Shown here: piece after piece, positions 8,321 through 35,365 of the stretch
Position numbering within the stretch: position 1 is the stretch's first letter
Layout of the letters: every line of letters begins with the position of its first letter
Assembly: GCF_000253155.1 (NCBI RefSeq)
Contig: NC_015291.1
Span: 62,001-126,000 of the forward strand
Source: Streptococcus oralis Uo5
GTDB taxonomy: Bacteria; Bacillota; Bacilli; Lactobacillales; Streptococcaceae
DNA length: 64,000 bases
Reading direction: 5' to 3'
Position numbers and translations under genes: made by a program
Notes under the pieces: model-generated
Database searches by the model: none
Told to the model about the DNA's origin: nothing
What the model saw: the letters and a program-made list of their open reading frames with translations, nothing else

Positions 8321-8992
8321 ATGAGAAAAATAATTTTTATTGGACAGAGCGGTGATAAGGCCGTTTACTATAATACGCGAACAAAAGAGGCTCTTGTAGC
8401 AGATAAGAGTGCCTTGTTAAATACAGAAGGGGCTAGGAGATCGAATAGGGGGATTGCTCCTTTAATTGCTATATTCTCTTTGTTAGGTTTACTCGGAGGA
8501 TTTGTTGCAATACCAATTTTCTCAGGCCTTCGTTATAATAGTGGGATGGTTCCTATTTTTATTCTTTGTCTTTCCTTTATCCTATTTGGATTTATATGGA
8601 TGATGGAAGTCGCCTTATATAAAGGAGTGAAACGAGTCCAAGGAGCAACAAAGAAAGAGTTTAAAGAAGCAGTTTATTCAAATTTGTTCTGGGAAAATTT
8701 TAGTGAGAAAAAAGCGACGTTTGCGAAAATGTTGGCTTTTATGATTGTCATGCTACTAGTTTTTATGACTACTATAGTAATATTTGCTGCTGCAATTCCG
8801 GGCACTATTGACTCATTCAATAAGCAAGAGGCATTTGATATACAAATCTTTTTCTCGCCTTTAGCAGGTCTCTTTCCTGCCTTGTTGTACCTTTTCTTAT
8901 TCCAAAACAACCCTATCCGCTGGCTCTTAGCTGTGCGAAAGTATGAACAGGGGAAAGTAATATTTAGGGAAGAAATAGAAAAGAGGGAATGA
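8321..8992 (+). CDS. Hypothetical membrane protein, paralogue B
   Basis: Unrecognised 223-residue protein and paralogue of the 7531 gene: both begin MRKIIxIGQ, share VYYNTRTKEAL, and end in FQNNPIRWLLAVRKYEQGKVI. Four hydrophobic helices are visible. The middle loop (KRVQGATKKEFKEAVYSN) aligns with SLVPASEEQFKDAVESS in paralogue A, so the similarity runs the full length. It is more AT-rich than paralogue A. Its stop overlaps the upstream ATG option of the next gene, pointing to co-translation. Confidence 0.72.
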   Translation: MRKIIFIGQSGDKAVYYNTRTKEALVADKSALLNTEGARRSNRGIAPLIAIFSLLGLLGGFVAIPIFSGLRYNSGMVPIFILCLSFILFGFIWMMEVALYKGVKRVQGATKKEFKEAVYSNLFWENFSEKKATFAKMLAFMIVMLLVFMTTIVIFAAAIPGTIDSFNKQEAFDIQIFFSPLAGLFPALLYLFLFQNNPIRWLLAVRKYEQGKVIFREEIEKRE

Positions 8993-8994
8993 TA

Positions 8995-9657
8995 ATGTCA
9001 CAAGAGAGATATTTGCAAATCAAAAAAGAGCATCAAGTTCGTAAGTTTGTGGGGCGTTTCCTCTTCATTCTTCTCGCTATACTCGATGTTCTACTGGTAT
9101 CAAGTCATTCCAATTATGTCCCGCTTGTAACGGTGGCTATGGTAACGATTGTGCCTTTTAATCATTTTCTACTTGGTCCTCTTAGGAGGCAGAAAAAAGC
9201 TATAGAAAAAGAGCATCCAGAATGGAAAATACTCAGCACACAGGGAGTAAGGGTTCCCTCGGCTGAAGCCAATAAAAGAACCTTGGCTGGTATTGGGATC
9301 TTGATGGCCTTGCTGTTGTCTTTTGGGCTATTTTATAAACCTGTGAAACAGTCGAACGTCCAAGTAAACAATCCGCCTAAACTTGATTTTAACACGCCTG
9401 AAACGTCCAAGCCTTCTGAGTCTGAGTCGTCGAGTTCCTCTAAGACCAAAGAATCCAGTTCCTCAGAGCCGAAATCCTCGTCTTCGACTGAACAAAGTTC
9501 TAAAACCGAAAGTTCAGGAACAAAGCCGTCAAAAAGCGAATCCAATAATCCTTATTACCAGATTCCAGGACTTACTGACGAACAGGTGAGAGATATCATA
9601 TCGAAATCTGTGAAAGATTTGAGAGAAAAACAGTCAAAAGAAAAATCCGAGGAATAG
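8995..9657 (+). CDS. Membrane protein with Ser/Lys-rich extracellular linker
   Basis: 220 residues with the start at the ATG at 8995, because GAGGG at 8981-8985 is then well spaced; an ATG at 8989 overlaps the previous stop. It has two N-terminal helices (about residues 18-55), a third near 98-118, and then a low-complexity region rich in Ser, Glu, Lys and Thr (about residues 135-185) typical of a surface-exposed linker. The tail is charged (ISKSVKDLREKQSKEKSEE). No LPXTG signal is present. Function unknown; it may be a cell-envelope partner of the neighbouring membrane proteins. Confidence 0.7.
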   Translation: MSQERYLQIKKEHQVRKFVGRFLFILLAILDVLLVSSHSNYVPLVTVAMVTIVPFNHFLLGPLRRQKKAIEKEHPEWKILSTQGVRVPSAEANKRTLAGIGILMALLLSFGLFYKPVKQSNVQVNNPPKLDFNTPETSKPSESESSSSSKTKESSSSEPKSSSSTEQSSKTESSGTKPSKSESNNPYYQIPGLTDEQVRDIISKSVKDLREKQSKEKSEE

Positions 9658-9732
9658 ACTCGAGGACTTCAATGTCCTTCTGGACGAGTTAGTTTTGGGA
9701 TTTTACCGTATAGAATAACAGGAGGAGTTCAT

Positions 9733-10290
9733 ATGAATAAAGAAGTGATTGGTTTGATAGTTGGGACAATCGTCATCTTCCTATCTTTTGTATTTGTGTG
9801 TGGGACCTTTCTTTTCCTCTATCTTCGAGATCAGAAGTTGGTCCGCCTTGCCAAGTCATCCGTTTCTGGAACGGTTATCGGCTATAGCCGTTTTCGTGAG
9901 GGGTATCCACCTATCGTCGAATACACGGTGGATGGGATTGCTTATAAGAAAACCTTGCAGTATTTTATGTTCAAAACGGTCACAATTCCGTGGGGGACTA
10001 CTAAATTTTTAAAGGACTATACAAGAGAAGATATGCTGGCACCTTCAATCACTCGCTACAGCAACTCCTTTGTTTCCTTCAAACGCTTGATGCAGACCCA
10101 TTTCCCCCTTCATTCGGAGCTGACAGTCTGGTATGATCCAGACAAGCCGACCAGGGCCTATGTCGAACGTTACAGCGGAATGAACAAGTTTTACAAGTGG
10201 TTTGGTATCGGATTTGGGCTGGCTCTAGTTATAGTCTATGGGATAGTGATCCTAGCCTTTTTGTCCAATTTGTCCAAGATATACGCATAA
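9733..10290 (+). CDS. DUF3592-like membrane protein
   Basis: 185 residues with one N-terminal helix (about 8-30) and one C-terminal helix (about 155-178) around a beta-rich soluble domain (SGTVIGYSRFREGYPPIVEYTVDG, then LTVWYDPDKPTRAYVE). The pattern of a YPPIVEYTVDG motif followed by a YDPxxP motif matches the DUF3592 family as I remember it; family function is unknown. A strong ribosome site (CAGGAGGAG) precedes the ATG. It ends the five-gene cluster. Confidence 0.7.
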   Translation: MNKEVIGLIVGTIVIFLSFVFVCGTFLFLYLRDQKLVRLAKSSVSGTVIGYSRFREGYPPIVEYTVDGIAYKKTLQYFMFKTVTIPWGTTKFLKDYTREDMLAPSITRYSNSFVSFKRLMQTHFPLHSELTVWYDPDKPTRAYVERYSGMNKFYKWFGIGFGLALVIVYGIVILAFLSNLSKIYA

Positions 10291-10433
10291 AGGTCAGTTG
10301 GTTAATAGGAAATTTAATTTCCCATCGAGCTTCAAGGAGGACAGAGTTTCTTTTCCATTTCCATGCTTATCAATCTTTTCTATCCGATACAGAGAAAAGG
10401 TTGCCTCCTACAAATACAGACAGGAAGTGAATT

Positions 10434-10462
10434 TTGACAAAGCCCCTTATTCGAGATATAAT
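10434..10462 (+). promoter_or_regulatory. Promoter of the CstR-like repressor gene, with possible operator half-site
   Basis: TTGACA at 10434-10439 and TATAAT at 10457-10462 with a 17-bp spacer: an exact consensus promoter. The spacer contains CCCCTTAT (10443-10450), which resembles half of the palindrome at the rhodanese promoter at 11912-11934. This suggests self-regulation by the repressor encoded just downstream. Confidence 0.75.
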
Positions 10463-10489
10463 GAAGAAAAAGTGACCAAGGATAAATCA

Positions 10490-10747
10490 ATGACAAACTC
10501 AAAGTATATAACACGCCTGAAACGTTCAGAGGGTCAGTTGCGTGGGATTCAAAAGATGATTGAAGAAGATCGTGACTGCGCAGATATTGTTACGCAGTTG
10601 ACAGCAGTGAAATCTAGCGTTGAGCGCGTGATTGAGATGATCATTACTGAAAATCTCACTGACTGTATCAACCAACCACTAGACGACCCCGAGGCTCAAA
10701 AGGAACGCCTAGAAAAGGCCATCCGATACCTGATTAAACGAAAATAA
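10490..10747 (+). CDS. CsoR-family repressor, CstR-like (persulfide sensor)
   Basis: 85-residue all-helical DNA-binding repressor of the CsoR/RcnR family (DUF156): RLKRSEGQLRGIQKMI at the N-terminus is the family signature. Copper-sensing CsoR proteins use Cys-His-Cys. Here Cys30 and Cys59 are present, but the position of the histidine (residue 55) is Asn. That two-cysteine, no-histidine pattern is typical of CstR, which senses persulfides and reactive sulfur. The neighbouring rhodanese genes support this reading. I chose the ATG at 10490 because it gives the family length and lies 28 bp after the -10 box. A weaker alternative is a copper or other metal sensor. Confidence 0.83.
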   Translation: MTNSKYITRLKRSEGQLRGIQKMIEEDRDCADIVTQLTAVKSSVERVIEMIITENLTDCINQPLDDPEAQKERLEKAIRYLIKRK

Positions 10748-10935
10748 ACTAATTTGCTATTGATAAACAATGCAGACAAAGGTATTTAAGTTTGTTCCGA
10801 CAAAAAAATCATGTCGGACAAACGGATGATTTCCCCCAAATACCAATGAGCAAACCTCTTTTTAGATACCATCAATTTGCTTCGTTTTATAGAAGCGACG
10901 GGCTACGAATCCTATATCAGTGGGTTGCAGAAATG
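10748..10935. other. Intergenic stretch without a supported gene
   Basis: Non-coding as far as I can tell. A short inverted repeat, TTTGTTCCGACA (10791-10802) and TGTCGGACAAA (10814-10824), may be a hairpin terminator for the repressor gene. An open frame across it has no ribosome site or recognisable product. Confidence 0.5.
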
Positions 10936-10968
10936 AAAAAACCGATTAAGGAACTTAATCGGTTTTTT
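10936..10968. terminator. Bidirectional terminator between repressor and rhodanese genes
   Basis: 15-bp perfect stem (10936-10950 with 10954-10968) with GAA loop, A-tract on the left and T-tract on the right, so it can stop transcription from both converging units. Confidence 0.9.
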
Positions 10969-10970
10969 CA

Positions 10971-11267
10971 TTATTCTACTTGACCGGGCCAAGCATTCAT
11001 ACCACCTTCTACATTGATAACGGTGAGGCCTTGGGCGCTTAGAAATTCACAAGCAGATGCGGATCGCACTCCACCTTGACAGATGACATGGTATTCCTGG
11101 TCAGGTTTGAGTTCTTTGTAACCTTGCTCCAAGGTACTTAACGGAAGATTTTTGGCACTTGGTGCATGTCCTGCTTGGAATTCATGCACTTCACGTACAT
11201 CGATAAGATTTAGATTTTCATTTAGGTATTTTTCATAAAAGTCAGCCATGCTGATACTAGTTTCCAT
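10971..11267 (-). CDS. Single-domain rhodanese (sulfurtransferase)
   Basis: 98-residue rhodanese-like protein that would move sulfane sulfur through a persulfide on its active-site cysteine. It shows LIDVREVHEFQAGHAPSAKN, the active loop CQGGVRS and the closing motif NVEGGMNAWPG. The start at 11267 is supported by AAGGAG upstream. It is the last gene of a unit that begins with another rhodanese, and it overlaps the end of a broken CoA-disulfide-reductase remnant by 11 bp. Likely role: handling persulfide under control of the CstR-like repressor. Confidence 0.9.
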   Translation of the reverse strand: METSISMADFYEKYLNENLNLIDVREVHEFQAGHAPSAKNLPLSTLEQGYKELKPDQEYHVICQGGVRSASACEFLSAQGLTVINVEGGMNAWPGQVE

Positions 11268-11582
11268 ATTTGACTCCTTCTGGATTAGCCATTTTATATT
11301 GTGAATAAGCGCCATCAAGGCTTTGGACGGTAAATCCTGCCTGCTGGAGGCTGTTCTTTGCAATATAGCGATGTAGGCCTGGTTCTTGTCTGGTTCATCC
11401 AAGTTCTCCCATAGTTCGCTTAGGGGGATGTGGATGGTGTCAACCTTAAGTCGACCACTTTGGAATTCGCCACTTGTCCGTACATCAAGGAATTTCTTTC
11501 CCTTAGTCAGTTCGTCTTCGAGCTGGTACCATTGGATATTATCGCTCAGACCTTCGATAAGGTTCAAGGCTACGTAGCCCAT
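11257..11582 (-). pseudogene. Remnant of CoA-disulfide reductase, C-terminal rhodanese domain, frameshifted
   Basis: Reading from 11582, one frame gives a linker and rhodanese start (GYVALNLIEG, IQWYQLED, FLDVRTSGEFQSG, IPLSELWEN) up to about 11377. A second frame then continues the same domain (GLHRYIAKNSLQQAGFTV, LDGAYSQYKMANPEG) to a stop at 11257-11259. The order matches the C-terminal rhodanese domain of CoA-disulfide reductases of the CoADR-RHD type. The FAD/NAD domains are gone and the remaining part carries a frameshift; the active-site cysteine loop falls at the break. It lies between two intact rhodanese genes, so the operon once coded for a fuller persulfide pathway. Confidence 0.75.
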
Positions 11583-11591
11583 TTTATGCTT

Positions 11592-11900
11592 CTAGATGAC
11601 CTTACCTGTCCAAGCGCTCATACCGCCTCGGACATTGATGACATCATAGCCTTTTTTCTTAAGCTTTTTCGCAGCTAGTTTGCTTCGTACACCAGAATGA
11701 CAAATGACATAAAGTGTTTCTTTTGTCGCTGGTGTATAAGATCCGATTTCGGTTAGAGGGACATTCTTGGCGTTTTTGATATGACCCCTACGGAATTCTA
11801 TAGGCGTCCGAACATCCAGTAGCTGAATCGGTTCTCTGAGTTTAGCTTCTAACTCGCTGGTCGAAATACTGTCAATTTTTGTAAATAATAAGTGAAACAT
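11592..11900 (-). CDS. Single-domain rhodanese, first gene of the CstR-like regulon
   Basis: 102-residue rhodanese-like sulfurtransferase with LLDVRTPIEFRRGHIKNAKN, the active loop CHSGVRS and NVRGGMSAWTG. Start at 11900: GGAGGTG precedes it closely, better than an in-frame ATG 12 bp upstream. The promoter and a 23-bp palindrome lie immediately upstream, so this gene heads the unit. It shares the fold of the gene at 10971 but the two are clearly diverged. Probable role: sulfane-sulfur transfer or persulfide detoxification. Confidence 0.9.
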   Translation of the reverse strand: MFHLLFTKIDSISTSELEAKLREPIQLLDVRTPIEFRRGHIKNAKNVPLTEIGSYTPATKETLYVICHSGVRSKLAAKKLKKKGYDVINVRGGMSAWTGKVI

Positions 11901-11911
11901 AGGCACCTCCA

Positions 11912-11960
11912 AATATACCCTTATGGGGTATATTAAACCATGAAGTCAAGCTTTTGTCAA
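11912..11960 (-). promoter_or_regulatory. Rhodanese promoter with CstR/CsoR-type palindromic operator
   Basis: On the minus strand, TTGACA (11955-11960) and TTTAAT (11932-11937) are 17 bp apart. A palindrome covers 11912-11934: arms AATATACC and GGTATATT around C-TTAT-GG. A GC-rich core flanked by ATA is typical for CsoR-family operators. It overlaps the -10 box and the likely start point, so binding would block transcription. Confidence 0.82.
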
Positions 11961-12018
11961 GCAAGTTGTTTTGACTTGGGAGGGAATTAGTTTCGAGAGT
12001 CTAGAAAGCAGGCTATTC

Positions 12019-12047
12019 TTGACCTTTCAAAGGCTTTTTGATATGAT
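12019..12047 (+). promoter_or_regulatory. Promoter of the acetyltransferase gene
   Basis: TTGACC at 12019-12024 and TATGAT at 12042-12047, spacer 17 bp, 28 bp before the start codon. Confidence 0.7.
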
Positions 12048-12075
12048 GAGTCCAAAGTAAGTGTGAGGTGATAAG

Positions 12076-12639
12076 ATGGCTAGCGAATACCAGAAAATGA
12101 TAGCAGGGGAGCCTTACCGTCCGTCGGACCCAGAGTTGCGTGTCTTGGCACAAGCTTCTCGCCAAAAACAGGCTGCCTTTAACAAGGAAGAAGATCCCTT
12201 GAAGGGAGCGAATATTATCAAGACTTGGTTTGGCTCAACTGGGCAAAATCTCTATGTCAATCCACGCTTGGTGGTGGACTACGGTGTCAATATCCATCTA
12301 GGGGAAAATTTTTATTCTAATTGGAACTTGACTATGCTGGATGTTTGTCCGATTCGCATCGGGAACAACGCCATGCTTGGCCCCAACTGTCAGTTTTTAA
12401 CCCCACTCCATCCACTGGATCCGGATGAACGCAATTCAGGGGTCGAATACGGCAAGCCCATCACCATTGGAGATAATTTCTGGGCTGGAGGTAGCGTCAT
12501 TGTCCTTCCTGGAGTGACACTGGGAAATAATGTCGTTGCAGGAGCAGGGGCCGTGATTACCAAGTCCTTTGGCGACAATGTTGTCCTAGGTGGGAATCCT
12601 GCGCGTGTTATCAAGGAAATCCCAGTAAAAGAAAACTAA
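12076..12639 (+). CDS. Sugar O-acetyltransferase (Maa/LacA/NodL type)
   Basis: 187 residues of a hexapeptide-repeat, left-handed beta-helix acetyltransferase that uses acetyl-CoA. The N-terminus carries the maltose-acetyltransferase cap (MIAGEPYRPSDPELR, then ARRKQ-like ASRQKQAAFN). The core shows VDYGVNIHLGENFYSNW, the catalytic histidine segment LTPLHPLDPDERN and the repeat run IGDNFWAGGSVIVLPG, then GNNVVAGAGAV. GAGGTG precedes the ATG. It has its own promoter and terminator. Substrate is probably a simple sugar such as maltose, glucose or galactoside. Confidence 0.9.
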   Translation: MASEYQKMIAGEPYRPSDPELRVLAQASRQKQAAFNKEEDPLKGANIIKTWFGSTGQNLYVNPRLVVDYGVNIHLGENFYSNWNLTMLDVCPIRIGNNAMLGPNCQFLTPLHPLDPDERNSGVEYGKPITIGDNFWAGGSVIVLPGVTLGNNVVAGAGAVITKSFGDNVVLGGNPARVIKEIPVKEN

Positions 12640-12666
12640 AAAGAACAGCCCAAGCTGTTCTTTTTA
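12640..12666. terminator. Terminator after the acetyltransferase gene
   Basis: 10-bp perfect stem AAAGAACAGC / GCTGTTCTTT with CCAA loop, then more T. It may also serve the opposing DUF4956 gene. Confidence 0.82.
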
Positions 12667-12678
12667 TGAGCTTTAGTC

Positions 12679-13362
12679 TTATAAATTTTTCTTCTTTTTG
12701 GCTTTCTTGGTCAAGGAGACATTGCACTGAGAAATCTTGCTTGTCAGGTAGCTTGTCAGTTGGAAGTCGTCTACTTGAGGATTAAGATCGACTTCGTAGA
12801 CGGTTTGCAAGGATTCACCAGCGTTGCTGGTATCTACTGAGATAAGGTCAGACTCGGTGCAAAATTGATCCAGCGCGACCTGGATAGTATCTAGGCGGTC
12901 TTCTTTATTGGGAAGTGTGATGGTCAAGAGTCTACGACGTTGGTGATTGCTCTTGCTCTGTTGTTTTTCCAAAAGGAGCCAAATACCTAGGATAAAGACC
13001 GTGAAGAGAACGGCTAAGAGAAGGTAGCCTGTCCCTGCCGCCAGACCGATGATCATGGCTAGAAAGATAGCGATTAGCTCTCGAGAGCCACTCGTTGCAG
13101 AACGAAAACGAATGAGACTAAAGGTCCCTGCCACTGCAATGGACGTTCCGAGACTACCATTGACGAGGAAGATAACCAGCGTCATCAAACAAGGTAAAAG
13201 GGTCAAACTGATGACAAATTCCCGTGTGTAAAGAGTCCGTTGCTTGTAGGCCCAGCTGAGTGCTAGTCCTAGAAAAAGGCTGACGACGAGGGCGAGTAGG
13301 AGTTGGAGGGGGTCAGCAGTGGCGGTTGCGTCGTTGAAAATAGAGTTAAAAAGATTAGACAT
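12679..13362 (-). CDS. DUF4956 membrane protein
   Basis: 227-residue protein with four or five N-terminal helices, a conserved FSLIRFRSATSGSRE segment between helices, and a C-terminal soluble domain of about 90 residues. This fits the DUF4956 family. The start at 13362 (MSNLFN) overlaps the 3' end of the VTC-domain gene by 8 bp, so the pair is co-translated. In many firmicutes DUF4956, VTC and CotH- or DUF4353-type genes occur together; the family role is unknown, with polyphosphate or surface-carbohydrate links proposed from the VTC partner. Confidence 0.83.
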   Translation of the reverse strand: MSNLFNSIFNDATATADPLQLLLALVVSLFLGLALSWAYKQRTLYTREFVISLTLLPCLMTLVIFLVNGSLGTSIAVAGTFSLIRFRSATSGSRELIAIFLAMIIGLAAGTGYLLLAVLFTVFILGIWLLLEKQQSKSNHQRRRLLTITLPNKEDRLDTIQVALDQFCTESDLISVDTSNAGESLQTVYEVDLNPQVDDFQLTSYLTSKISQCNVSLTKKAKKKKNL

Positions 13363-14131
13363 AAGCATTACCTACACTTTCTCCGATAGGTTGAGGTGCA
13401 TAGGCCAGTCCCTGTGATTTATGGTAGGCGCAGGAGTATTTTGAGAATTTTTGCTCTACTAGCCCATACTTATCAAGGATATCCTGTAGCCATTGTGGTT
13501 TGTCACCAGGCGCTTTGATTTCCATGATGACCAGTTCGTCTTCTAAGAGAGGCAGACCTTTTTTGTCAGCGAATAGGCAGACCTGTTTATCACGATAGGT
13601 CAGATTTTGGTCAAGAGTGACACGAATTTTCTGGTAGGGGGATCCTGGGATTTTCTTTTTTTCTTTTAGTGAAAAACGGTCATAAGAGATATAGATACGC
13701 GGTTTGAGATCTTCACTGTAGCGTTGGCGTAGCTTTTGAACCTCTGCTACCAGAAAGCTATCTTTGATCAGGTCTTCTCCCCAACCCTTGGTGATGAGTT
13801 GGGTGATGGTATCTGACTGGGCCAGGACGCGGTGCTTGTGACCGACACCGGCATCATCTTTTGACTTGATTTCTAGAAAGACGGGGCTGTTAGCGCTTGG
13901 TTGCGCGAGATAGGTTCGCATACGGATTTTTTCCTTCTTATGCTGATCCTGCAGAGAGTCTTGGATGAGCTGAAAATCTTCTGTATCAAAGTAGATATTG
14001 GAAATAGTCGAAGTCGGATAGTCGTCCTCGACGAGGTAGTCTTTCAAATCTTCTATTAAATCGTGTAGGTCTGTTTTAGAGACCAGGTACTTGGTTTCGA
14101 TCCGTTCAAAGCTTGTTTCTAGGGGTTTCAT
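13355..14131 (-). CDS. VTC-domain protein (polyphosphate-polymerase-like fold)
   Basis: 258-residue soluble protein with a triphosphate-tunnel fold. Visible signs are FERIETKYLVSK near the N-terminus (the ExExK-type strand), SNIYFDTEDF, KIRMRTY, a VFLEIKSKDD strand, PRIYISYDRFSL and LPLLEDELVIMEIKAPG. All are typical charged strands of VTC4-like domains. The start at 14131 follows AAAGGAG. The gene is divergent from the DUF4353 lipoprotein gene across 201 bp and overlaps the DUF4956 gene downstream. Catalytic activity cannot be confirmed from sequence. Confidence 0.83.
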   Translation of the reverse strand: MKPLETSFERIETKYLVSKTDLHDLIEDLKDYLVEDDYPTSTISNIYFDTEDFQLIQDSLQDQHKKEKIRMRTYLAQPSANSPVFLEIKSKDDAGVGHKHRVLAQSDTITQLITKGWGEDLIKDSFLVAEVQKLRQRYSEDLKPRIYISYDRFSLKEKKKIPGSPYQKIRVTLDQNLTYRDKQVCLFADKKGLPLLEDELVIMEIKAPGDKPQWLQDILDKYGLVEQKFSKYSCAYHKSQGLAYAPQPIGESVGNAYV

Positions 14132-14242
14132 AAGCAATTTCTCCTTTAGATAAATCATAGATTAAACAAGGTAAACTTGCTTGGAACAAGTCTAGAGGAC
14201 ATTTCTAAAAGTTTTATTAAGCGAAACTTAACTGAAACTGAA

Positions 14243-14259
14243 TTTAAGGAAACTTTCAG
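14243..14259 (+). promoter_or_regulatory. Possible CiaR-like direct repeat in the divergent VTC / lipoprotein region
   Basis: TTTAAG (14243-14248), 5 bp, TTTCAG (14254-14259). The CiaR consensus in pneumococcus is TTTAAG-N5-TTTAAG, so this has one mismatch and the right spacing. I see no convincing -10 box at the expected distance, so this is a weak call. The region also has several GAAACT repeats. Confidence 0.3.
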
Positions 14260-25422: not shown

Positions 25423-26034
25423 ATGTCACGTTATACAGGACCATCTTGGAAACAAGCTCGTCGCCTTGGCCTTTCACTTACAGGTACAGGTAAAGAATTG
25501 GCACGTCGTAACTACGTACCAGGACAACACGGACCAAACAACCGTTCTAAATTGTCAGAATACGGTTTGCAATTGGCTGAAAAACAAAAACTTCGTTTCA
25601 CTTACGGTGTAGGTGAAAAACAATTCCGTAACTTGTTCGTACAAGCTACAAAAATCAAAGGCGGAATCCTAGGTTTCAACTTCATGCTTCTTTTGGAACG
25701 TCGTTTGGATAACGTTGTTTACCGTCTTGGCCTTGCGACTACTCGTCGTCAAGCTCGTCAATTCGTAAACCACGGTCACATCCTTGTTGACGGAAAACGC
25801 GTTGATATCCCATCATACCGCGTAACTCCAGGTCAAGTGATCTCAGTTCGTGAAAAATCATTGAAAGTTCCAGCAATCCTTGAAGCAGTAGAAGCTACTC
25901 TTGGACGCCCAGCATTCGTATCATTCGACGCTGAAAAATTGGAAGGTTCATTGACTCGCTTGCCAGAACGCGACGAAATCAACCCAGAAATCAACGAAGC
26001 ACTTGTCGTTGAATTCTACAACAAAATGCTTTAA
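25423..26034 (+). CDS. rpsD: 30S ribosomal protein S4
   Basis: 203 residues, the usual length. Primary 16S-binding protein and assembly initiator of the small subunit. Recognised by [19 protein letters not shown], the [16 protein letters not shown] [12 protein letters not shown] segment and the S4 RNA-binding domain ([20 protein letters not shown], then [11 protein letters not shown]). A strong ribosome site (CAGGAGGAC) lies upstream. Codon use is strongly biased, as for highly expressed genes. The 3' side is the edge of an accessory island with a truncated integrase. Confidence 0.98.
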
Positions 26035-26107: not shown

Positions 26108-26131
26108 TTGTTCAGTTATTTGTTCAGTTAT
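26108..26131. repeat. Tandem 12-bp repeat at the integrase end
   Basis: TTGTTCAGTTAT occurs twice back to back at 26108-26119 and 26120-26131, overlapping the last codons of the truncated integrase. Short direct repeats at an integrase end are often arm-type binding sites or part of an att site. A related motif, ATTCAGTTA, recurs twice at 40863-40882 near the rpmG end. Confidence 0.5.
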
Positions 26132-26667
26132 AAACTTTTTAGTGCAGTTTCATAGAATGAGACTGCTTTTTTTGCGTTCTCTTTTGAGAGGTGACTGTAT
26201 ATATCCATGGTCATAGATAATTGGGAATGTCCTAAACGGTGCTGAAGTTCCTTGTAGGGTATTCCAGAGTTAAGCAATAAACTAGCGTGTGTATGTCTGA
26301 AGCCATGAAAACCTATATTAGTGACGTTTGCCCGTTTAAAGTGGGTTCTTAACCTAGTATGTAAGGTTCGATTATTGGGGTATTCATGAATAAAGTCAGA
26401 AAATACTACCGTTTCAGACCGCCCAAGTTGCCAAGCTTCTTGTACTTGTCTATGTTTGTACTGCTTCAGCATACTAACAGTCGCTTGATCTATATCTAAA
26501 TCCCGATAGCTTGCTTTTGATTTTGGACTATTGGTTTCTTGTTTATAGTTTAAAGTCTTTGTGATATGCACAACTGCATTATCTAAATCTATATCAGACC
26601 AAGAAAGAGCTAAAGCTTCATTGATATGATAATCGATTTCTATATACCAAAAATACTTATCGAGTAA
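26128..26667 (-). pseudogene. Truncated tyrosine recombinase (integrase) remnant
   Basis: C-terminal catalytic part only. An open frame of 147 codons is seen from 26571, and the same frame continues upstream to 26667 (NEALALSWSDIDLDNAVV), where a stop interrupts. Kept catalytic motifs are HGFRHTHASLL (His-x-x-Arg), RLGHSQLSMTMDIY with the nucleophile Tyr, and a lysine-containing strand. The N-terminal arm and core-binding domains are missing, and the segment where the first catalytic arginine should stand reads IDYHINEAL. The enzyme is surely inactive. It marks the left edge of an island downstream of rpsD. Confidence 0.85.
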
Positions 26668-26848: not shown

Positions 26849-28570
26849 ATGGCTGAAAGAATAATACATCAAGCTGATCTTCGAGCTATCGAGAACAACT
26901 TGCGCTCTATCCATGAAGGATTACGAACAATTGATGCTAGAGTTGATGTAGCAAACGAAAATCTTCAAATCGTGTACGATGAAATTGGTAGTTTAGCACA
27001 AGAATTTCATGAATTTGTGAATATCCAACAAAAAGCTAATAGATTAGGACAAGCTGAAACTCGACTGGTAAAAATACGTCAGGAAATTGAGAAGAAATAC
27101 GGACATTATGATATTGTTCGTCGTACTACCACAGGGATTTTACAAGCTGATGATTTAGGAATTGTCAAAAAAGAAACAATCAGCACTGCAACAGAAGAAC
27201 TAATGATATCAACTCCAGGCTACTGGCTTGCTCCATGCTTGGTTGCATTAGCAGCATGGATAAATAATCAACCCGAGTTAGCTGAAAAAGCAGTCAAGGA
27301 AGGGATTAAACGAAACGATGAAAAAACCTCCCTTTTCTTTGCCTTAATTTGTAGAAGAGCTAACAGAAAGAACGCATGCCTTAAGTGGACTCAACGTTAT
27401 CTAGCTAATCAAGATGAAGAAAATCTCGACAGAAATTCTATAATTATCTTAGATGCTTTTGCGAGTGGACTCTTGGGAGCTGATACCGAAGGAGTCATCT
27501 CACGTCAAATGAATGAATGGCTCAGTCGACTTGAAGAAAAACCTGGTTTTACTGAACAGCAAACAGAACAATGGTCCGAAGCCATTAACTTAAAAAGAAG
27601 AGAACTAGATGAAGATTTATACCCTAACCTAAGAAAATATAGTAATAGTTGGCCTGTTCTAGAGGATATTTTAGAAGGTGCTCATCTCCATGAACAAATA
27701 TTAAACTATCTAACTGATATTTTTGAGAAAAAAGGGTCTACAGAAAGCGTCAAAGAACAATTAGATGATATTTTAGACACACTTGTGACTGATTTTGATA
27801 ACGAGGAACTAGCTCTTCGAAAACAAGAAAAATTCGAGCAGTTTGTGGTTGACTTTGGAGGAGATGACAACCGTGCTCATCAAAACATGGATATTGAGGT
27901 GACTGCATTTGAAACCCATAAAGACTTCACCCAGTTGCTTACCGATGCAGCAATGAAACCCGAATCTTCTCACTCAAGTATATCAACCCAAAAATTTGCA
28001 TTGGCTCTTTCTCGTGATTGGGTAACAAACGCTTATAATGACGTTACTGCAAAAAATCGCATGAAGATTCCTTACGAAATTGAAATTAATGTGGATACTT
28101 TTAATGATAAATCAACAGATGGCCAAAACGAAAACGAGTTGATTGAAAAATTCAATTCTCAGATTGACTCTGAAAAAGAACAAACTTTGTCAAATTACTT
28201 CCCAAGTTTATTTGATAAATTCCTTTTGTATGGTGGGATAGCTATCGGAGTAATCGGTTTAATGATGATTTTTGGGAATATTTTCTTAGGTTTAATAGCT
28301 ATTATAGCGGGGATTGTTATGGTTCTTAAGCATAAATCTAATATTGAAAACATTGAAACGAATCGCAAGAAAATTGAAGAACAATACGAGAATAAAAGAG
28401 TGAATGGTGAACAAATTATAAGAGCTACTCTAGCTGAAATTGTAGACTTTAGAATTGAATTCGCAGAGAGAGATGCTGAAAGCACTAAAGTTCTTGATTT
28501 CCTCGAACAAATAAGACCTGAACAATATGTAAACAAGTTGGCATCATCTAATAGAAAGATTAAAATTTGA
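26849..28570 (+). CDS. Large helical membrane protein of the AAA+ operon, unknown function
   Basis: Unrecognised 573-residue protein; the ATG at 26849 is chosen for its AAGGGGG ribosome site. Residues 1-100 look like long helices or coiled coil (NLRSIHEGLRTIDARVDVAN and so on). Residues about 115-200 have a TPR-like alpha pattern (PCLVALAAWINNQPELAEKA, then FFALICRRANRKNACLKWTQ). The middle is acidic and helical. Two membrane helices lie near residues 455-492 (YGGIAIGVIGLMMIFG, FLGLIAIIAGIVMVL), and a final coiled coil carries KHKSNIENIETNRKKIEEQYE. With a downstream AAA+ ATPase it may form a membrane-bound scaffold or effector. No enzyme motif seen. Confidence 0.8.
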   Translation: MAERIIHQADLRAIENNLRSIHEGLRTIDARVDVANENLQIVYDEIGSLAQEFHEFVNIQQKANRLGQAETRLVKIRQEIEKKYGHYDIVRRTTTGILQADDLGIVKKETISTATEELMISTPGYWLAPCLVALAAWINNQPELAEKAVKEGIKRNDEKTSLFFALICRRANRKNACLKWTQRYLANQDEENLDRNSIIILDAFASGLLGADTEGVISRQMNEWLSRLEEKPGFTEQQTEQWSEAINLKRRELDEDLYPNLRKYSNSWPVLEDILEGAHLHEQILNYLTDIFEKKGSTESVKEQLDDILDTLVTDFDNEELALRKQEKFEQFVVDFGGDDNRAHQNMDIEVTAFETHKDFTQLLTDAAMKPESSHSSISTQKFALALSRDWVTNAYNDVTAKNRMKIPYEIEINVDTFNDKSTDGQNENELIEKFNSQIDSEKEQTLSNYFPSLFDKFLLYGGIAIGVIGLMMIFGNIFLGLIAIIAGIVMVLKHKSNIENIETNRKKIEEQYENKRVNGEQIIRATLAEIVDFRIEFAERDAESTKVLDFLEQIRPEQYVNKLASSNRKIKI

Positions 28571-28583
28571 GGAGGTAATTGAC

Positions 28584-28760
28584 ATGGATGAAAAATATAA
28601 AGGCGATAGTAAGCTATCATCTAATAACACCACTCCATTTAAGAGCATTAATACTGAAGAAGATATCACTGAAGAACCTATGAGCGTGTTTGCTGAGGGA
28701 CTCCCTTCATGGGATATTGTGCCCCCACAATTGCTAGTCAGAAGGAAACGGCAAAAATAA
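28584..28760 (+). CDS. 58-residue acidic peptide with C-terminal FAEGLPSWDIVPP motif
   Basis: Small open frame with an excellent ribosome site (GAGGAGG at 28569-28575). The first 30 residues are polar and probably disordered. The end, FAEGLPSWDIVPPQ followed by LLVRRKRQK, is a striking short motif: an aromatic-proline core and a basic tail. It begins 13 bp after the large membrane protein gene and its stop overlaps the next start (TAATG), so it is translated as part of the operon. It resembles a docking peptide or adaptor for a partner in the operon, which is inference. Confidence 0.7.
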   Translation: MDEKYKGDSKLSSNNTTPFKSINTEEDITEEPMSVFAEGLPSWDIVPPQLLVRRKRQK

Positions 28761-29224
28761 TGAATAAACCACAAACATATGCAGAATGGGTAAATGTCTT
28801 AGCTATTTTTAAAAACAAAGATGATGATGAAACAGTTTTAAAAATGATGAAATCTGGAACTATCGAATGGCAATACGGTGTGGCAGAACGTTTCTCTACA
28901 AAGTTAATTGACGCTGTTAATTACCGTATGAATGTAGCTTCAGATAAGTTTCAAAATGATTTACTAAAATCCCAAGGATACGAGGGAGCTATTATTCAAG
29001 CAATTCTTTCTTTGAGAAAAGAAATGACGTTCTTAGCTGAAGCAATCAATCTTCCTGTAATTCCGGATAAAGAGCGACAACACTACCTAAATCTCGTTAT
29101 AGAACAAGCTAATAGTATGCAAAAATCTTTAGAAGAATCCGCAAAACAGGACCGAAGCGGGAAAATGTCAAGTATTATTAGAAATCATAAAATTAATTCT
29201 TTTTTAAATAAAGGTGAACAGTAA
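28760..29224 (+). CDS. 154-residue helical protein of the AAA+ operon
   Basis: Unrecognised protein. The start at 28760 overlaps the previous stop (TAATG), which fits translational coupling better than an upstream in-frame start at 28709. It is mostly helical, with WVNVLAIFKNKDDDETVLKMM near the N-terminus, long amphipathic helices in the middle (FLAEAINLPVIPDKERQHYL) and a basic end (SGKMSSIIRNHKINSFLNK). There is no membrane segment. Its stop is directly followed by the ATG of the ATPase, so a 1:1 complex is plausible. Confidence 0.8.
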   Translation: MNKPQTYAEWVNVLAIFKNKDDDETVLKMMKSGTIEWQYGVAERFSTKLIDAVNYRMNVASDKFQNDLLKSQGYEGAIIQAILSLRKEMTFLAEAINLPVIPDKERQHYLNLVIEQANSMQKSLEESAKQDRSGKMSSIIRNHKINSFLNKGEQ

Positions 29225-30802
29225 ATGAGCAATATAGTAAAAAGCAAAGAACTTCTTACGAGATATTCACTTGCAAGAATTCCTTTTATTGCTATCAATA
29301 CCATTGAGCCAAGTAGAACATTAGATATGTTAAAGGAAATATCTGAAGAATTACAACTTCCGTTCAACGTATATACTCTCACCAAAGGTGTGTATGATCT
29401 TAGTTCTGGTAAGAATGTTAACGATGATAAATCTATTTATGGTGCAATAGATTACATGACGGACCAAATGCAAAAGAAACAATACCAAACTATTGTACTG
29501 ACAGAAGTTCCGGATCTTAGTAATGAAAATAGCGATTCTAAACAAGTCTTAGCACTGGTCAATCTAGCCAATGAAACTGGAGGCGTTGTAATAGTTTTTA
29601 CCAATACCCCTATTTGGAATCAACTTCAACGGCAAGGTATGACAGTAAAAATAGATTTACCTAACGAAGAGGAAATGTACTCAATAATTCAAGAATACAT
29701 TGACGACTATAGAAACGATATCCAGATTGAATGGGACAACTCCGATATTCGAGAAGCTGCAGCAGCTCTCAATGGGGTAACTAGAATTGAGGCGGAGAAC
29801 GTTATCGCTGCTTTGATTGCAAATAAGTGCATAAGAAAATCTGATTTAGATGAGATAAGATTTGCAAAAGATCGCCTATTCTCTGATATCTCTGGTCTAG
29901 AAAAAATCGTTGTAGATGATTCTGTAAAGGATGTCGGAGGACTTGAAGGATTAAGGAAGTGGCTTAATGAAAAGAAAGAACTACTAACTCCCGAAAAGAA
30001 AGATATGTTACGTGAGAAAGGATTGCAACCACCTAGAGGAATACTCCTAGTAGGTGTCCCTGGATGCGGAAAATCTTTATCTGCTAAATCAATTTCCGCT
30101 AACTGGAAACTTCCATTATATCGTTTAGATTTTGCAACGGTTCAAGGAAGTTATGTAGGTCAGTCTGAACAGCAACTCAAAGATGCTCTAACTACCGCTG
30201 AGAATGTATCCCCATGTATTTTATGGATTGATGAAATAGAAAAAGGACTATCAGGAGCTACTGGAGGCGCTAATGATGGCGGTGTATCTACTCGTATGGT
30301 TGGTCAATTCTTATTCTGGATGCAAGAATGCAAAAAACAAGTTTTTGTAGTTGCAACAGCTAATGATGTGTCTATGCTTCCATCAGAACTTCTTCGTCGA
30401 GGAAGGTTTGATGAGTTATTCTTTGTTGATTTACCTACTGCAGATGAGCGTAAAGAAATACTTGCTTTGTATTTTAAAAAATACTTAAGTCTAGAATTTG
30501 AAGGAGAGTTTGCTGATAATATCATTCAAATAAGTGATGGTTTCACTGGTGCGGACTTAGAATCGACAGTTAGAGATTTAGCTTACCGAGCTATCGCTAA
30601 TAACAATTTTATTCTCAACGAAGAGAATATCATGAATGCTTTCAATAATGTAGTCCCACTCTCTCAAACTAGCCCAGAAAAAATTGAGGCTATTAGAGAT
30701 TGGGGGAAAGAAAGAGCTGTTCCTGCATCTGGAAAACCAATCGGTGGAGAGGGACTTGTTCATAAACAAAGTGGACTTAAAACAAGAAAAGTACTTGTTT
30801 AA
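29225..30802 (+). CDS. Ycf46-like AAA+ ATPase
   Basis: 525-residue ATPase of the classical AAA clade (COG0464-like). Residues 1-200 form the N-terminal domain seen in Ycf46 proteins (LLTRYSLARIPFIAINTIEPSR, then TIVLTEVPDLS), a degenerate P-loop-like fold. The AAA module starts near 235 (VGGLEGLRKWL) with Walker A GVPGCGKS near 277, Walker B CILWIDEIEKG near 330, sensor 1 VVATAND, and the arginine-finger pair LLRRGRFDELF. The C-terminal lid follows (GFTGADLESTVRDLAYRA). ATP hydrolysis should be active. Ycf46 proteins are poorly understood; here it is the last gene of a tight operon with a membrane partner and small proteins. Confidence 0.9.
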   Translation: MSNIVKSKELLTRYSLARIPFIAINTIEPSRTLDMLKEISEELQLPFNVYTLTKGVYDLSSGKNVNDDKSIYGAIDYMTDQMQKKQYQTIVLTEVPDLSNENSDSKQVLALVNLANETGGVVIVFTNTPIWNQLQRQGMTVKIDLPNEEEMYSIIQEYIDDYRNDIQIEWDNSDIREAAAALNGVTRIEAENVIAALIANKCIRKSDLDEIRFAKDRLFSDISGLEKIVVDDSVKDVGGLEGLRKWLNEKKELLTPEKKDMLREKGLQPPRGILLVGVPGCGKSLSAKSISANWKLPLYRLDFATVQGSYVGQSEQQLKDALTTAENVSPCILWIDEIEKGLSGATGGANDGGVSTRMVGQFLFWMQECKKQVFVVATANDVSMLPSELLRRGRFDELFFVDLPTADERKEILALYFKKYLSLEFEGEFADNIIQISDGFTGADLESTVRDLAYRAIANNNFILNEENIMNAFNNVVPLSQTSPEKIEAIRDWGKERAVPASGKPIGGEGLVHKQSGLKTRKVLV

Positions 30803-30815
30803 TAAGTTCATTATT

Positions 30816-30857
30816 TGGACACGGTAACTGTAATCTCAGTTTCGTGTCCATTTTTAT
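30816..30857 (+). terminator. Terminator of the AAA+ operon
   Basis: 8-bp stem TGGACACG (30816-30823) / CGTGTCCA (30843-30850), with extra pairing inside the loop (AACTG / CAGTT), then TTTTT. Confidence 0.8.
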
Positions 30858-30949
30858 AATTCCTTAAATGAAGATCTATTCTGAGAGTACCATTAAAAGG
30901 AATCTTAAATTGCAAAATATAACTTATAACACGATTAGGAGAAAAATAG

Positions 30950-31432
30950 ATGCCTAGACCAATGTTAAATCCATACCAATCCCAAAAACAAACACAAGCA
31001 AGCCATATCATGACTTCTAACTTAAAACAACCACAAATAGATAAATTGAGTTTAGATAGGCTTCTAAGAAAATCACGGTCTAAAGAATATATGGATGCTA
31101 TTCATCAACTAGATGCAGGAGGACATGTTCATAATAAAAAGGAAGTAAATGAAATTATTAATACAATCAAGTCGGAATTCCCAGATGTGGATATTAATGG
31201 AATTCTCCTAGGTTTTGTAGCAAAATGTTATTTAGGAGCACCTTACGAAGCGCACACCCTAGACTTAGTTGGAGAAATCATTGAGCATTATAAACGAGGA
31301 GAGATATTACCTGGTGGCCTCGATAAAGCCAAAAGCATTGCTTTACATGGAGGATATGATTTTATCGAAGTTTATACAGACTGTTGTCGAGCAATTAGCT
31401 CAAATGGTTCCGTATCAGTTATAAAAGACTAA
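30950..31432 (+). CDS. Hypothetical 160-residue protein downstream of the AAA+ operon
   Basis: Unrecognised. The ribosome site (TAGGAGAAA) and codon use support a real gene. The N-terminus is polar and rich in Gln and Pro (RPMLNPYQSQKQTQASH), the rest is compact: LDRLLRKSRSKEYMDAIHQL, FPDVDINGILLGFVAKCYLG, and an ending with GGYDFIEVYTDCCRAIS. Two adjacent cysteines are present. It lies 147 bp after the ATPase, beyond a terminator, so it needs its own promoter, but it stays in the same island and could be a fifth part or an immunity/regulator of the system. Confidence 0.65.
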   Translation: MPRPMLNPYQSQKQTQASHIMTSNLKQPQIDKLSLDRLLRKSRSKEYMDAIHQLDAGGHVHNKKEVNEIINTIKSEFPDVDINGILLGFVAKCYLGAPYEAHTLDLVGEIIEHYKRGEILPGGLDKAKSIALHGGYDFIEVYTDCCRAISSNGSVSVIKD

Positions 31433-34024: not shown

Positions 34025-35365
34025 ATGTTCCATATAAATCGTAGGGTTTCTCTTTGCGAGTCATATATTTTATCAACAGCCTTAATGAAGACTTGTTATT
34101 GGGCTTGTATACTATCTCAAGTTTTTATATTTATTTTATTGGTTTTAATCTTTAATATTTCAGGGATTTTATTACTACTGCTTGTAGGATTAGAAATTGT
34201 CATCGCTAATAAACTTATATCAAAGCTGAGTGAAGTATACAATAGAATACAGCCCATCCTTGCTATACGTGAACAATTAATCTTCCTACTTGAATCTAAC
34301 AACCTGTTTATATCTTCTTCTGAAGGGGCTGTAGTTCGTTCCGTGGTTCTTGACTTTTCTATAGATGAGGAATACATAGTTGTTTATGCTCATGTTATGG
34401 GTGATAATTTCTCTAATAAGGTTTCAGAGTTAGATGTATATTTGAGTGCTTGTTTGAATTTAAATTTGGAACAAAAATTAAAGAGTCCTAGTTTTACTAA
34501 GTACATATTCAGAAGATATCCTGAGAAAAGGATTTCTTGGGAGGAGACTCTAAAAACAACAAGGATTACAATTTCCGATAGCGTTGGCTTCCAGCTTGGT
34601 TCTCCGCCCCACGTCCTTTTGGCAGGCTCGACGAAGTCAGGAAAAACGGTAATGATAGAGAACCTTGTGGCTCAATACTTAACTTTAGGGGCTGAAATAA
34701 AATTGCTTGACCCTAAAAATGGCGACTTGAGTTGGCTAGTTGGTAAGAAGCTAGAAGATAGATTAGGCTATAAAGTAGTTTATAATTCTCCCTTTCAAAT
34801 TTCTGGTGCCCTTCGTGAGGCTGTCTTGGAAATGAATAGACGCTTTCAGATTATGGCAGATAACCCAGATATATATGTTTCTAAAGGGAAGGTTTTGTCT
34901 TGGGCTGATGTTAAGGGGAATTACCCTCTTGTAGTAGTACTTGATGAAGGGATTGCCTTTAAAACCGAGGCCGAGACGTTTAAAGAAGGGAAACAAGCCT
35001 ATCAAGAGGCAATGTCAAATCTTGGGAGTCTCTTGGTAAAATCACGCCAAGCTTCAATAGAGGTGATAATCGGTTTACAGAGGGCCTCAAGTGACTTCAT
35101 TCCGACATATATGAGACAAAACTTTGGAGTAGCTCTCTTGTTGGGGTCAACTACTGCTGATTCAGATTCTTGTCGCATGATGTTTTCAAGTCAAGAGATT
35201 GATTATAAGACTTGTGGTATTGGCGAAGGATATTGCCAAATAGATGGGGTGCTTCCTACGCCTAAGTTTGTAGAGACACCGTTCAAGTCTGACGAACTAG
35301 ACTTTGAAGCATATTTTGATGAAGCTTGTGATAGGTATATGAGGATGCGAAATGAACGAAATTAG
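34025..35365 (+). CDS. FtsK/SpoIIIE-type coupling protein (TcpA/Orf21-like)
   Basis: 446-residue DNA-transfer ATPase that brings the relaxase-DNA complex to a conjugation channel. Two N-terminal membrane helices (about residues 22-65) precede the motor domain. Walker A is AGSTKSGKT near residue 205, with LLDPKNGDLSWL shortly after and Walker B YPLVVVLDEG. KSRQASIEVIIGLQRASSDF and the ending with GEGYCQI are typical FtsK-like motifs. In Tn916 the equivalent is Orf21. It is placed ahead of the relaxase gene, as in MobT-type elements. Confidence 0.9.
   Translation: MFHINRRVSLCESYILSTALMKTCYWACILSQVFIFILLVLIFNISGILLLLLVGLEIVIANKLISKLSEVYNRIQPILAIREQLIFLLESNNLFISSSEGAVVRSVVLDFSIDEEYIVVYAHVMGDNFSNKVSELDVYLSACLNLNLEQKLKSPSFTKYIFRRYPEKRISWEETLKTTRITISDSVGFQLGSPPHVLLAGSTKSGKTVMIENLVAQYLTLGAEIKLLDPKNGDLSWLVGKKLEDRLGYKVVYNSPFQISGALREAVLEMNRRFQIMADNPDIYVSKGKVLSWADVKGNYPLVVVLDEGIAFKTEAETFKEGKQAYQEAMSNLGSLLVKSRQASIEVIIGLQRASSDFIPTYMRQNFGVALLLGSTTADSDSCRMMFSSQEIDYKTCGIGEGYCQIDGVLPTPKFVETPFKSDELDFEAYFDEACDRYMRMRNERN

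What the first reader, a model, noticed from the sequence alone, without database searches (positions are those of the whole stretch)
26849..31432. Unassigned operon with a Ycf46-like AAA+ ATPase, a helical membrane protein, a 58-aa peptide and a helical partner
Seen: four genes with gaps of 13 bp, an overlap (TAATG) and 0 bp, ending in a strong terminator, and a fifth gene 147 bp on. Only the ATPase is recognisable (Ycf46-like N-domain plus complete AAA module). The first gene has TPR-like and coiled-coil parts and two membrane helices. The block sits between a dead integrase and core DNA, a usual place for defence or stress islands. I know no described system with this gene set. Inference: the ATPase remodels or gates the membrane protein, with the small proteins as adaptor or sensor.
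Basis: partly seen in the sequence, partly recalled or inferred. Interest (0 to 1): 0.88.

Follow-up and report, generated by a model that had tools for sequence, protein, structure and literature searches.

The report
Undescribed five-gene AAA+ membrane system
Five neighbouring genes in a Streptococcus genome turn out to be a travelling set, found together in bacteria from four phyla, and may form a membrane-bound molecular machine used in conflicts with phages or rival bacteria, though that role is untested.

Summary
Genes A (573 aa), B (58), C (154), D (525, AAA+) and E (160) at 26849-31432 are open, and A, C, D and E are under purifying selection. They belong to a co-inherited module. A scan of 84,980 species genomes found 94 relatives of A; of the best 80 plus the window, 75 hold all five genes, 5 end at contig ends, and 1 holds all five with a conflict-type cluster inserted between A and B. 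Searches with C and E led to the same genomes. A, B, C and E match no Pfam or NCBIfam family above cut-off. B ends in a conserved GLP.W..PP..VRR motif, preceded by a zinc ribbon mainly in Clostridia. D ends in an R[KR].VL-type tail in all copies checked, C in one clade; E never. In six Clostridia loci a gene with N-terminal [FY][DEN]DC motifs, one carrying a papain-fold toxin domain, sits between D and E. Best reading (0.5): a membrane-anchored AAA+ conflict module. Toxin export and envelope quality control are rivals. No function was tested.

The parts
26849..28570 (+). Gene A: 573-aa helical-repeat membrane protein
   Evidence: ORF; model pLDDT 82.4; relatives in 80 fetched loci
28208..28339 (+). 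Part of A coding the hydrophobic helix pair, residues 454-497
   Evidence: hydropathy and helices 454-473, 478-542 in the model
28584..28760 (+). Gene B: 58-aa peptide, adaptor role inferred
   Evidence: ORF; B profile found in 84 of the 86 sequences searched
28698..28745 (+). Conserved end of B, GLPSWDIVPPQLLVRR
   Evidence: pattern [FLM]P.W[DNST]..P.{3,5}R[RK] in 79 of 82 B proteins
28760..29224 (+). Gene C: 154-aa soluble protein (no membrane segment by hydropathy)
   Evidence: ORF starting in the TAATG overlap; 0 of 80 C proteins with a hydrophobic segment; alignment A8
29225..30802 (+). Gene D: 525-aa AAA+ ATPase; N-terminal part without Walker A
   Evidence: PF00004 E 3.4e-29; 0 of 78 D proteins have a Walker A in the first 230 residues
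30041..30430 (+). AAA core of D, residues 273-402
   Evidence: PF00004 match
30779..30799 (+). C-terminal tail of D, KTRKVLV
   Evidence: R[KRN].?[VIL][LIMVF] in the last 15 residues in 77 of 77 D proteins, 7 of 734 neighbours
30816..30850 (+). Terminator-like hairpin between D and E
   Evidence: -19.5 kcal/mol, z -7.2
30950..31432 (+). Gene E: 160-aa alpha/beta protein with invariant C93, H102, H113, E140
   Evidence: alignment of 65; model pLDDT 82.8
26128..26571 (-). Remnant of a tyrosine integrase beside rpsD
   Evidence: 147-aa ORF; 65% DNA identity to the annotated integrase of Javan368 and to DNA beside rpsD in three relatives

Best explanation
ABCDE is the constant core of a mobile conflict (anti-phage or anti-competitor) module. 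D is expected to form a Cdc48-like ring whose first AAA-like domain is dead. It would work at the membrane on a complex scaffolded by A (TPR-like platform plus a membrane hairpin), with B and C as adaptors docked through short tails. E is the only member without such a tail and is the likeliest reader or sensor. On a trigger, D would remodel this complex and release a harmful activity. In some Clostridia that activity would be a separate toxin kept beside an immunity protein; in minimal versions such as this one it would most simply be the membrane hairpin of A. Shown: the gene set, its co-inheritance, the motifs, the toxin and GTPase/tubulin neighbours. Inferred: ring formation, docking, trigger, outcome.
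For: Co-occurrence: 75 of 81 loci complete, 5 cut by contig ends, 1 interrupted but complete. D keeps Walker A, Walker B and RRGRFDE in 78 of 78. A has a TPR-like part and a hydrophobic helix pair. Tails: D 77 of 77, C 29 of 32 in the E-first clade, E 0 of 74, neighbours 7 of 734; the linked c2 protein carries R[KR][VIL][LIMV] inside in 7 of 8. Conflict links in Clostridia: Gln_amidase toxin domain 4.3e-15 (L024) and SUKH-1 immunity 2.3e-9 (L035) inside the D-E gap; vWA 6.6e-13, Tubulin_2 2.7e-50 and DO-GTPase2 1e-6 inserted inside the operon in L043/L118; TIR protein in L019. Mobile settings: beside an integrase remnant, next to satellite phage Javan368, on a Komagataeibacter plasmid, on an IMG/VR contig with a recombinase-like ORF (the last by resemblance). 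Rare and patchy: strong A hits in 4 of 147 genus, 2 of 398 phylum and 1 of 200 family genomes, the window's or the seed's own genome included each time.
Confidence: 0.5

Rival explanations
1. ABCDE is an export or delivery machine for polymorphic toxins: D unfolds toxin clients marked by N-terminal DDC motifs and feeds them to a membrane assembly built on A, helped by the HerA/FtsK-like c1 in some lineages.
For: DDC genes sit between D and E (in L047, after D with the contig ending) in 6 of 7 Firmicutes-type loci with both c1 and c2 and in 0 of 28 others with enough flank (Fisher 4e-6, post hoc, not corrected for kinship). They lie at scattered places of the A tree: 6 changes needed, at least 4 forced by supported forks, no more clustered than shuffled labels. 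A SUKH-1 immunity gene follows one, as in secreted polymorphic toxin systems.
Against: 29 of 35 assessable loci have no DDC gene; A has few membrane helices and no channel is evident; relatives of c1 occur in 43 plasmid records while A occurs in 4, so c1 is not tied to ABCDE. c1 was not found in the window's genome (the tool notes that an empty answer without a positive control shows nothing).
Confidence: 0.25
2. ABCDE is an envelope-stress or membrane-protein quality-control unit, like bacterial PspA or Snf7 operons with AAA+ partners.
For: TPR-like repeats plus membrane helices plus a Cdc48-type ATPase. Passages of PMC11237479 report PspA beside proteins with two AAA+ domains, the first inactive, and AAA+ genes beside TPR-6TM proteins.
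Against: Rare and patchy in related genomes, mobile settings, and no PspA or Snf7 model among the Pfam matches of A-E; the toxin, vWA, tubulin and GTPase links are unexpected for housekeeping.
Confidence: 0.15
3. The genes are idle passengers of a decayed integrative element.
For: The neighbouring integrase is a remnant, no function is known, and six other loci have one or more of the five genes in split frames (L038, L053, L055, L067, L071, L088).
Against: All five frames are open here and dN/dS is 0.05-0.34 in 13 comparisons; the set is kept across phyla.
Confidence: 0.04

Closest known systems
GAP1-N2 / DO-GTPase / tubulin conflict systems (Kaur et al. 2020, PMC7159879; sections 27 and 29 and passages seen)
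   Same: NTPase-driven constant core, zinc ribbons, membrane parts, variable effectors; in L043/L118 a vWA, Tubulin_2 and DO-GTPase2 cluster lies inside the ABCDE operon; Tubulin_2 also follows E in L056.
   Different: The ABCDE core has no GTPase, GAP1, vWA or tubulin match. The sections and passages seen do not mention this gene set; 'Ycf46' occurs 0 times in the main text.
MoxR-vWA ternary systems (same paper, passages only)
   Same: AAA+ ATPase with co-chaperone-like partners.
   Different: D's strong matches are AAA, CDC48, PAN and FtsH models; no MoxR or vWA model was listed for A-E (AAA_5 at 0.0041, below its cut-off).
IetAS anti-phage system (PADLOC, NCBIfam)
   Same: D scores against IetA over the AAA domain (E 1.3e-34, 118 bits).
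   Different: The NCBIfam antiphage model has a cut-off of 510 bits, D scores 91.6; no subtilase-type partner among A, B, C, E (partner recalled).
[quoted passage not shown] 2012, PMC3482391, passages only)
   Same: Toxin domain PF15644 (L024) and SUKH-1 immunity (L035) in the D-E gap.
   Different: DDC genes are absent from 29 of 35 assessable Firmicutes-type loci; the DDC stretch matches none of the trafficking domains named in the passages seen.
phrog_8638 phage AAA+ proteins (e.g. Samunavirus SM1, Corndogvirus Catdawg)
   Same: phrog_8638 matches D over residues 9-502 (E 1.3e-106); these phage proteins are about 30% identical.
   Different: The annotated regions around two of them show no obvious A-B-C-E set (judged from gene sizes and names, not searched by profile).

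Membership tests
Classical AAA+ ATPase (Cdc48/PAN/FtsH clade) | AAA domain with Walker A, Walker B and RRGRFDE-type arginine motif | tested here: met
   PF00004 3.4e-29; all three motifs in 78 of 78
Ycf46 family | Degenerate N-terminal AAA domain before an active one, and sequence kinship with Ycf46 | tested here: inconclusive
   No Walker A in the first 230 residues of 78 of 78, but no Ycf46 model or sequence was compared; the name is recalled
IetAS | IetA above the curated cut-off | tested here: not met
   91.6 bits against a cut-off of 510
IetAS | IetS subtilase partner beside the ATPase | tested here: not met
   None of A, B, C, E has a PADLOC hit at E up to 1; the partner's nature is recalled
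MoxR-vWA ternary systems | MoxR AAA+ plus vWA protein | tested here: not met
   No MoxR or vWA model among the listed Pfam matches for A-E at E up to 1
DO-GTPase / GAP1 systems | DO-GTPase and GAP1 genes in the core | tested here: not met
   No such Pfam match for A-E; DO-GTPase2 found only as an insert in L118
Polymorphic toxin delivery system | Toxin with variable C-terminus plus immunity gene | tested here: inconclusive
   DDC genes in 6 of 35 assessable Firmicutes-type loci; only L024 has a Pfam toxin domain and only L035 a Pfam immunity domain
Known anti-phage system | Protects against phage | not testable with these tools
   needs plaque assays

The most novel reading that the evidence does not exclude
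ABCDE is the core of an undescribed class of bacterial conflict machine: a tail-coded AAA+ platform at the membrane. Partners (D always, C in one clade, the accessory c2) carry a shared basic-hydrophobic R[KR].VL-type motif read by E, and interchangeable toxins marked by N-terminal DDC motifs are plugged into the same operon, while minimal versions act alone as mobile immune modules.
Probability: 0.28. Interest if true: 0.88.

Novelty: new variant of a known kind. Interest (0 to 1): 0.7.

Why it matters
Four protein families without a named relative in the libraries searched travel as a fixed set with a Cdc48-type ATPase in Bacillota, Pseudomonadota, Fusobacteriota and Actinomycetota. If it is a conflict module, it adds a new constant core to NTPase-gated bacterial immunity and offers a simple five-gene Streptococcus version to study. 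The shared tails make the wiring of such a machine directly testable with peptides.

Tried and rejected

Defence-island enrichment: 114 nearest neighbours of the 31 E-first loci against 93 further ones, PADLOC E <= 1e-10. Near: Mokosh, PD-Lambda-1, DrmC, Mrr-type, Hhe, mad3 and mad8 models among others. Far: methylases, Mrr-type, IetA, mad3 and mad8. The output lists families, not distinct genes, and only the first 25 (of 28 and of 60), so no ratio is claimed. These ORFs came from a crude longest-ORF caller. Pfam on the near set shows no recurring partner.

L043 first looked like an A-only exception; fetching further sequence showed B, C, D and E downstream of an insert. Rows dropped before counts: L007-L010 and L093 left out of the 81-locus count; L067 (broken frames) left out of the A, C, D and E protein sets and of the structure alignments; proteins outside length limits dropped from those sets, hence differing n; the tail count still holds duplicates (L010 equals L091; L093 has the same coordinates as L071), one search leaves out L007 and L093 only. 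Weak A hits (E 3.6e-5 and 9.5e-4, 7.2e-4) were not counted as strong. The positives are the window's own genome, G337 (by its coordinates the genome of L071) and the seed G558, all already in the set: these samples show no C or E without A, but add no new locus.

Exceptions to exclusivity: D homologues occur in 136 phage records, 48 of them covering 80% or more of D; E-like proteins occur apart from the core in L119 (E 6e-10, beside a protein with an AAA match) and as a second partial copy in L018.

Literature: 8 searches listed no paper that I could recognise as describing this set. Of PMC7159879 I saw sections 27 and 29 and passages; of PMC3482391 and PMC11237479 passages; the rest only as listings. 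The library holds open-licence papers only.
Full report
WHAT IS THERE. The window lies in a 1,958,690-base genome (G000) that I take for a Streptococcus of the oralis/mitis group, because S. oralis and S. infantis strains carry A at 95-99% identity. A stable hairpin with a T-rich run sits between D and E. A, C, D and E are under purifying selection: dN/dS 0.05-0.34 in 13 comparisons with four other streptococcal loci; 3 pairs of unequal length were skipped and B was not tested.

FAMILIES. Only D has strong matches: AAA (PF00004, 3.4e-29), CDC48, PAN and FtsH models below their cut-offs, and phrog_8638 over residues 9-502 (1.3e-106). A, B, C and E have no match above a curated cut-off in Pfam or NCBIfam, none in PADLOC, and only weak PHROGs matches (best 0.00046, for A). 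Profile searches of solved structures found nothing for E and nothing convincing for A or C.

A CONSERVED SET. A alone finds 4 plasmid-collection records: a Fusobacterium record (2.1 Mb, so probably a chromosome), Comamonas antarctica and two Komagataeibacter nataicola records. The three that I opened (the Fusobacterium, the Comamonas and one Komagataeibacter) carry all five genes. Queries with E and with C find the same 4 of 72,556 records and no other at E <= 0.001. In viral contigs, A and E each find the same single contig, which reads A-B-C-D-E by eye; the C search could not run. A scan of 84,980 species genomes found 94 relatives of A; the best 80 were fetched. With profiles iterated on these loci, 75 of 81 loci (80 plus the window) hold all five genes, 44 in order ABCDE and 31 as EABCD; 5 stop at a contig end; L043 showed A only. 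Its genome has E on the same contig, and the fetched stretch L118 shows B, C, D and E after a large insert. Presence is not intactness: six loci have genes in split frames (L038, L053, L055, L067, L071, L088). In a sample of 398 genomes of the phylum, A (strong hits), C and E are found in the same 2; in 200 genomes of the Comamonas family, A (strong hit) and E in the same 1. These positives were already in my set, so the samples show the absence of lone C and E but add no locus.

TWO ARCHITECTURES. The E-first type (Paenibacillus, Pseudomonadota and one Peptococcaceae MAG) is one side of a branch with SH-aLRT 100 in the A tree. The MAG sits inside the Pseudomonadota part and a Bifidobacterium on the other side, which suggests transfer between phyla, though binning error and long branches are possible.

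SHORT MOTIFS. B ends in a conserved [FLM]P.W[DNST]..P.{3,5}R[RK] in 79 of 82 proteins, and a CxxC...CxxC zinc-ribbon pattern occurs in 38, mainly from Clostridia; the streptococcal B lacks it. D has R[KRN].?[VIL][LIMVF] in its last 15 residues in 77 of 77; by a similar pattern C does so in 29 of 32 E-first copies and 0 of 48 others; E never does (0 of 74); 7 of 734 neighbouring proteins do. A carries R[KR] in its last 15 residues in 66 of 81 and B in 82 of 82 (neighbours 107 of 734). The accessory c2 protein has R[KR][VIL][LIMV] inside in 7 of 8. Patterns were set after looking at the data, and related sequences are not independent.

FUNCTIONAL CLUES. In some Clostridia a HerA-like protein (c1, DUF87 3e-8) and a zinc-ribbon membrane protein (c2) precede A, and a gene with N-terminal [FY][DEN]DC motifs in acidic or serine-rich stretches follows D. 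This holds in 6 of 7 Firmicutes-type loci with both c1 and c2 and in 0 of 28 others with enough flank. Five of the six genes have two or three motifs, the L024 gene one. The L024 gene has a papain-fold toxin domain (PF15644, 4.3e-15) and the L035 gene is followed by a SUKH-1 immunity gene (PF09346, 2.3e-9); the L023, L031, L035 and L036 proteins had no toxin match in Pfam, and an HNH-like and two HExxH stretches in them were seen by eye or by simple pattern. The L047 gene is near the contig end and shows no toxin part. On the A tree these loci need 6 changes, at least 4 forced by supported forks, no more clustered than shuffled labels, so the link was made or lost repeatedly. Separately, L043/L118 has vWA, Tubulin_2 and DO-GTPase2 genes inside the operon, L056 a Tubulin_2 gene after E, and L019 a TIR gene. 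Kaur et al. 2020 (PMC7159879) describe GTPase, tubulin and vWA neighbourhoods as conflict systems; the sections and passages seen do not mention this set. Against a conflict role: the E-first loci show no recurring neighbour and no clear enrichment of defence models.

SETTING. Window 26020-31432 matches Javan368 8844-14257 at 97.5%. Because this match starts in the last bases of rpsD, I infer that the operon with its integrase remnant lies beyond the end of the satellite proper, as an older insertion at the rpsD 3' end. Integrase-like DNA follows rpsD in 3 of 19 relatives' loci.

MECHANISM. The best-supported reading is a membrane-anchored AAA+ conflict module (0.5). Toxin export (0.25), envelope quality control (0.15) and idle cargo (0.04) are the rivals. 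The co-inheritance, motifs and neighbours are shown; assembly, trigger and outcome are inferred.

NOVELTY. No known system sharing the core was found in the libraries and searches used, but the general kind (NTPase-gated conflict system with variable effectors) is known, so I rate it a new variant of a known kind and keep the more novel reading separate.

Noticed in passing
L007 (MK448457, Javan368) 8844-14257: The deposited satellite phage record probably runs past the satellite's true end: its last 5.4 kb match the window's stretch after rpsD at 97.5%, including the integrase remnant and A-E.
   Followed up: partly
window 25423-26034: The 3' end of rpsD looks like an integration hot spot in streptococci: integrase-like DNA follows it in L101, L103 and L117.
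   Followed up: partly
L119 3044-6512: An E-like protein beside a 968-aa protein with AAA and AAA_lid_6 domains, near the L023 operon in the same genome: a possible paralogous system.
   Followed up: partly
L030 6758-10150: Directly after E, a 1131-aa protein with two AAA modules and an FtsH-type M41 peptidase domain.
   Followed up: no
L125 1329-9745: A HerA-like relative of c1 on a Lactococcus plasmid lies in a run with two dynamin-family genes and an HNH endonuclease.
   Followed up: no
L008 (NZ_CP084075): A 2.1-Mb Fusobacterium record filed as a plasmid, most likely a chromosome.
   Followed up: no
window 34025-35365: A 446-aa ORF that looks like an FtsK-type ATPase of an integrative element (by resemblance only).
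   Followed up: no
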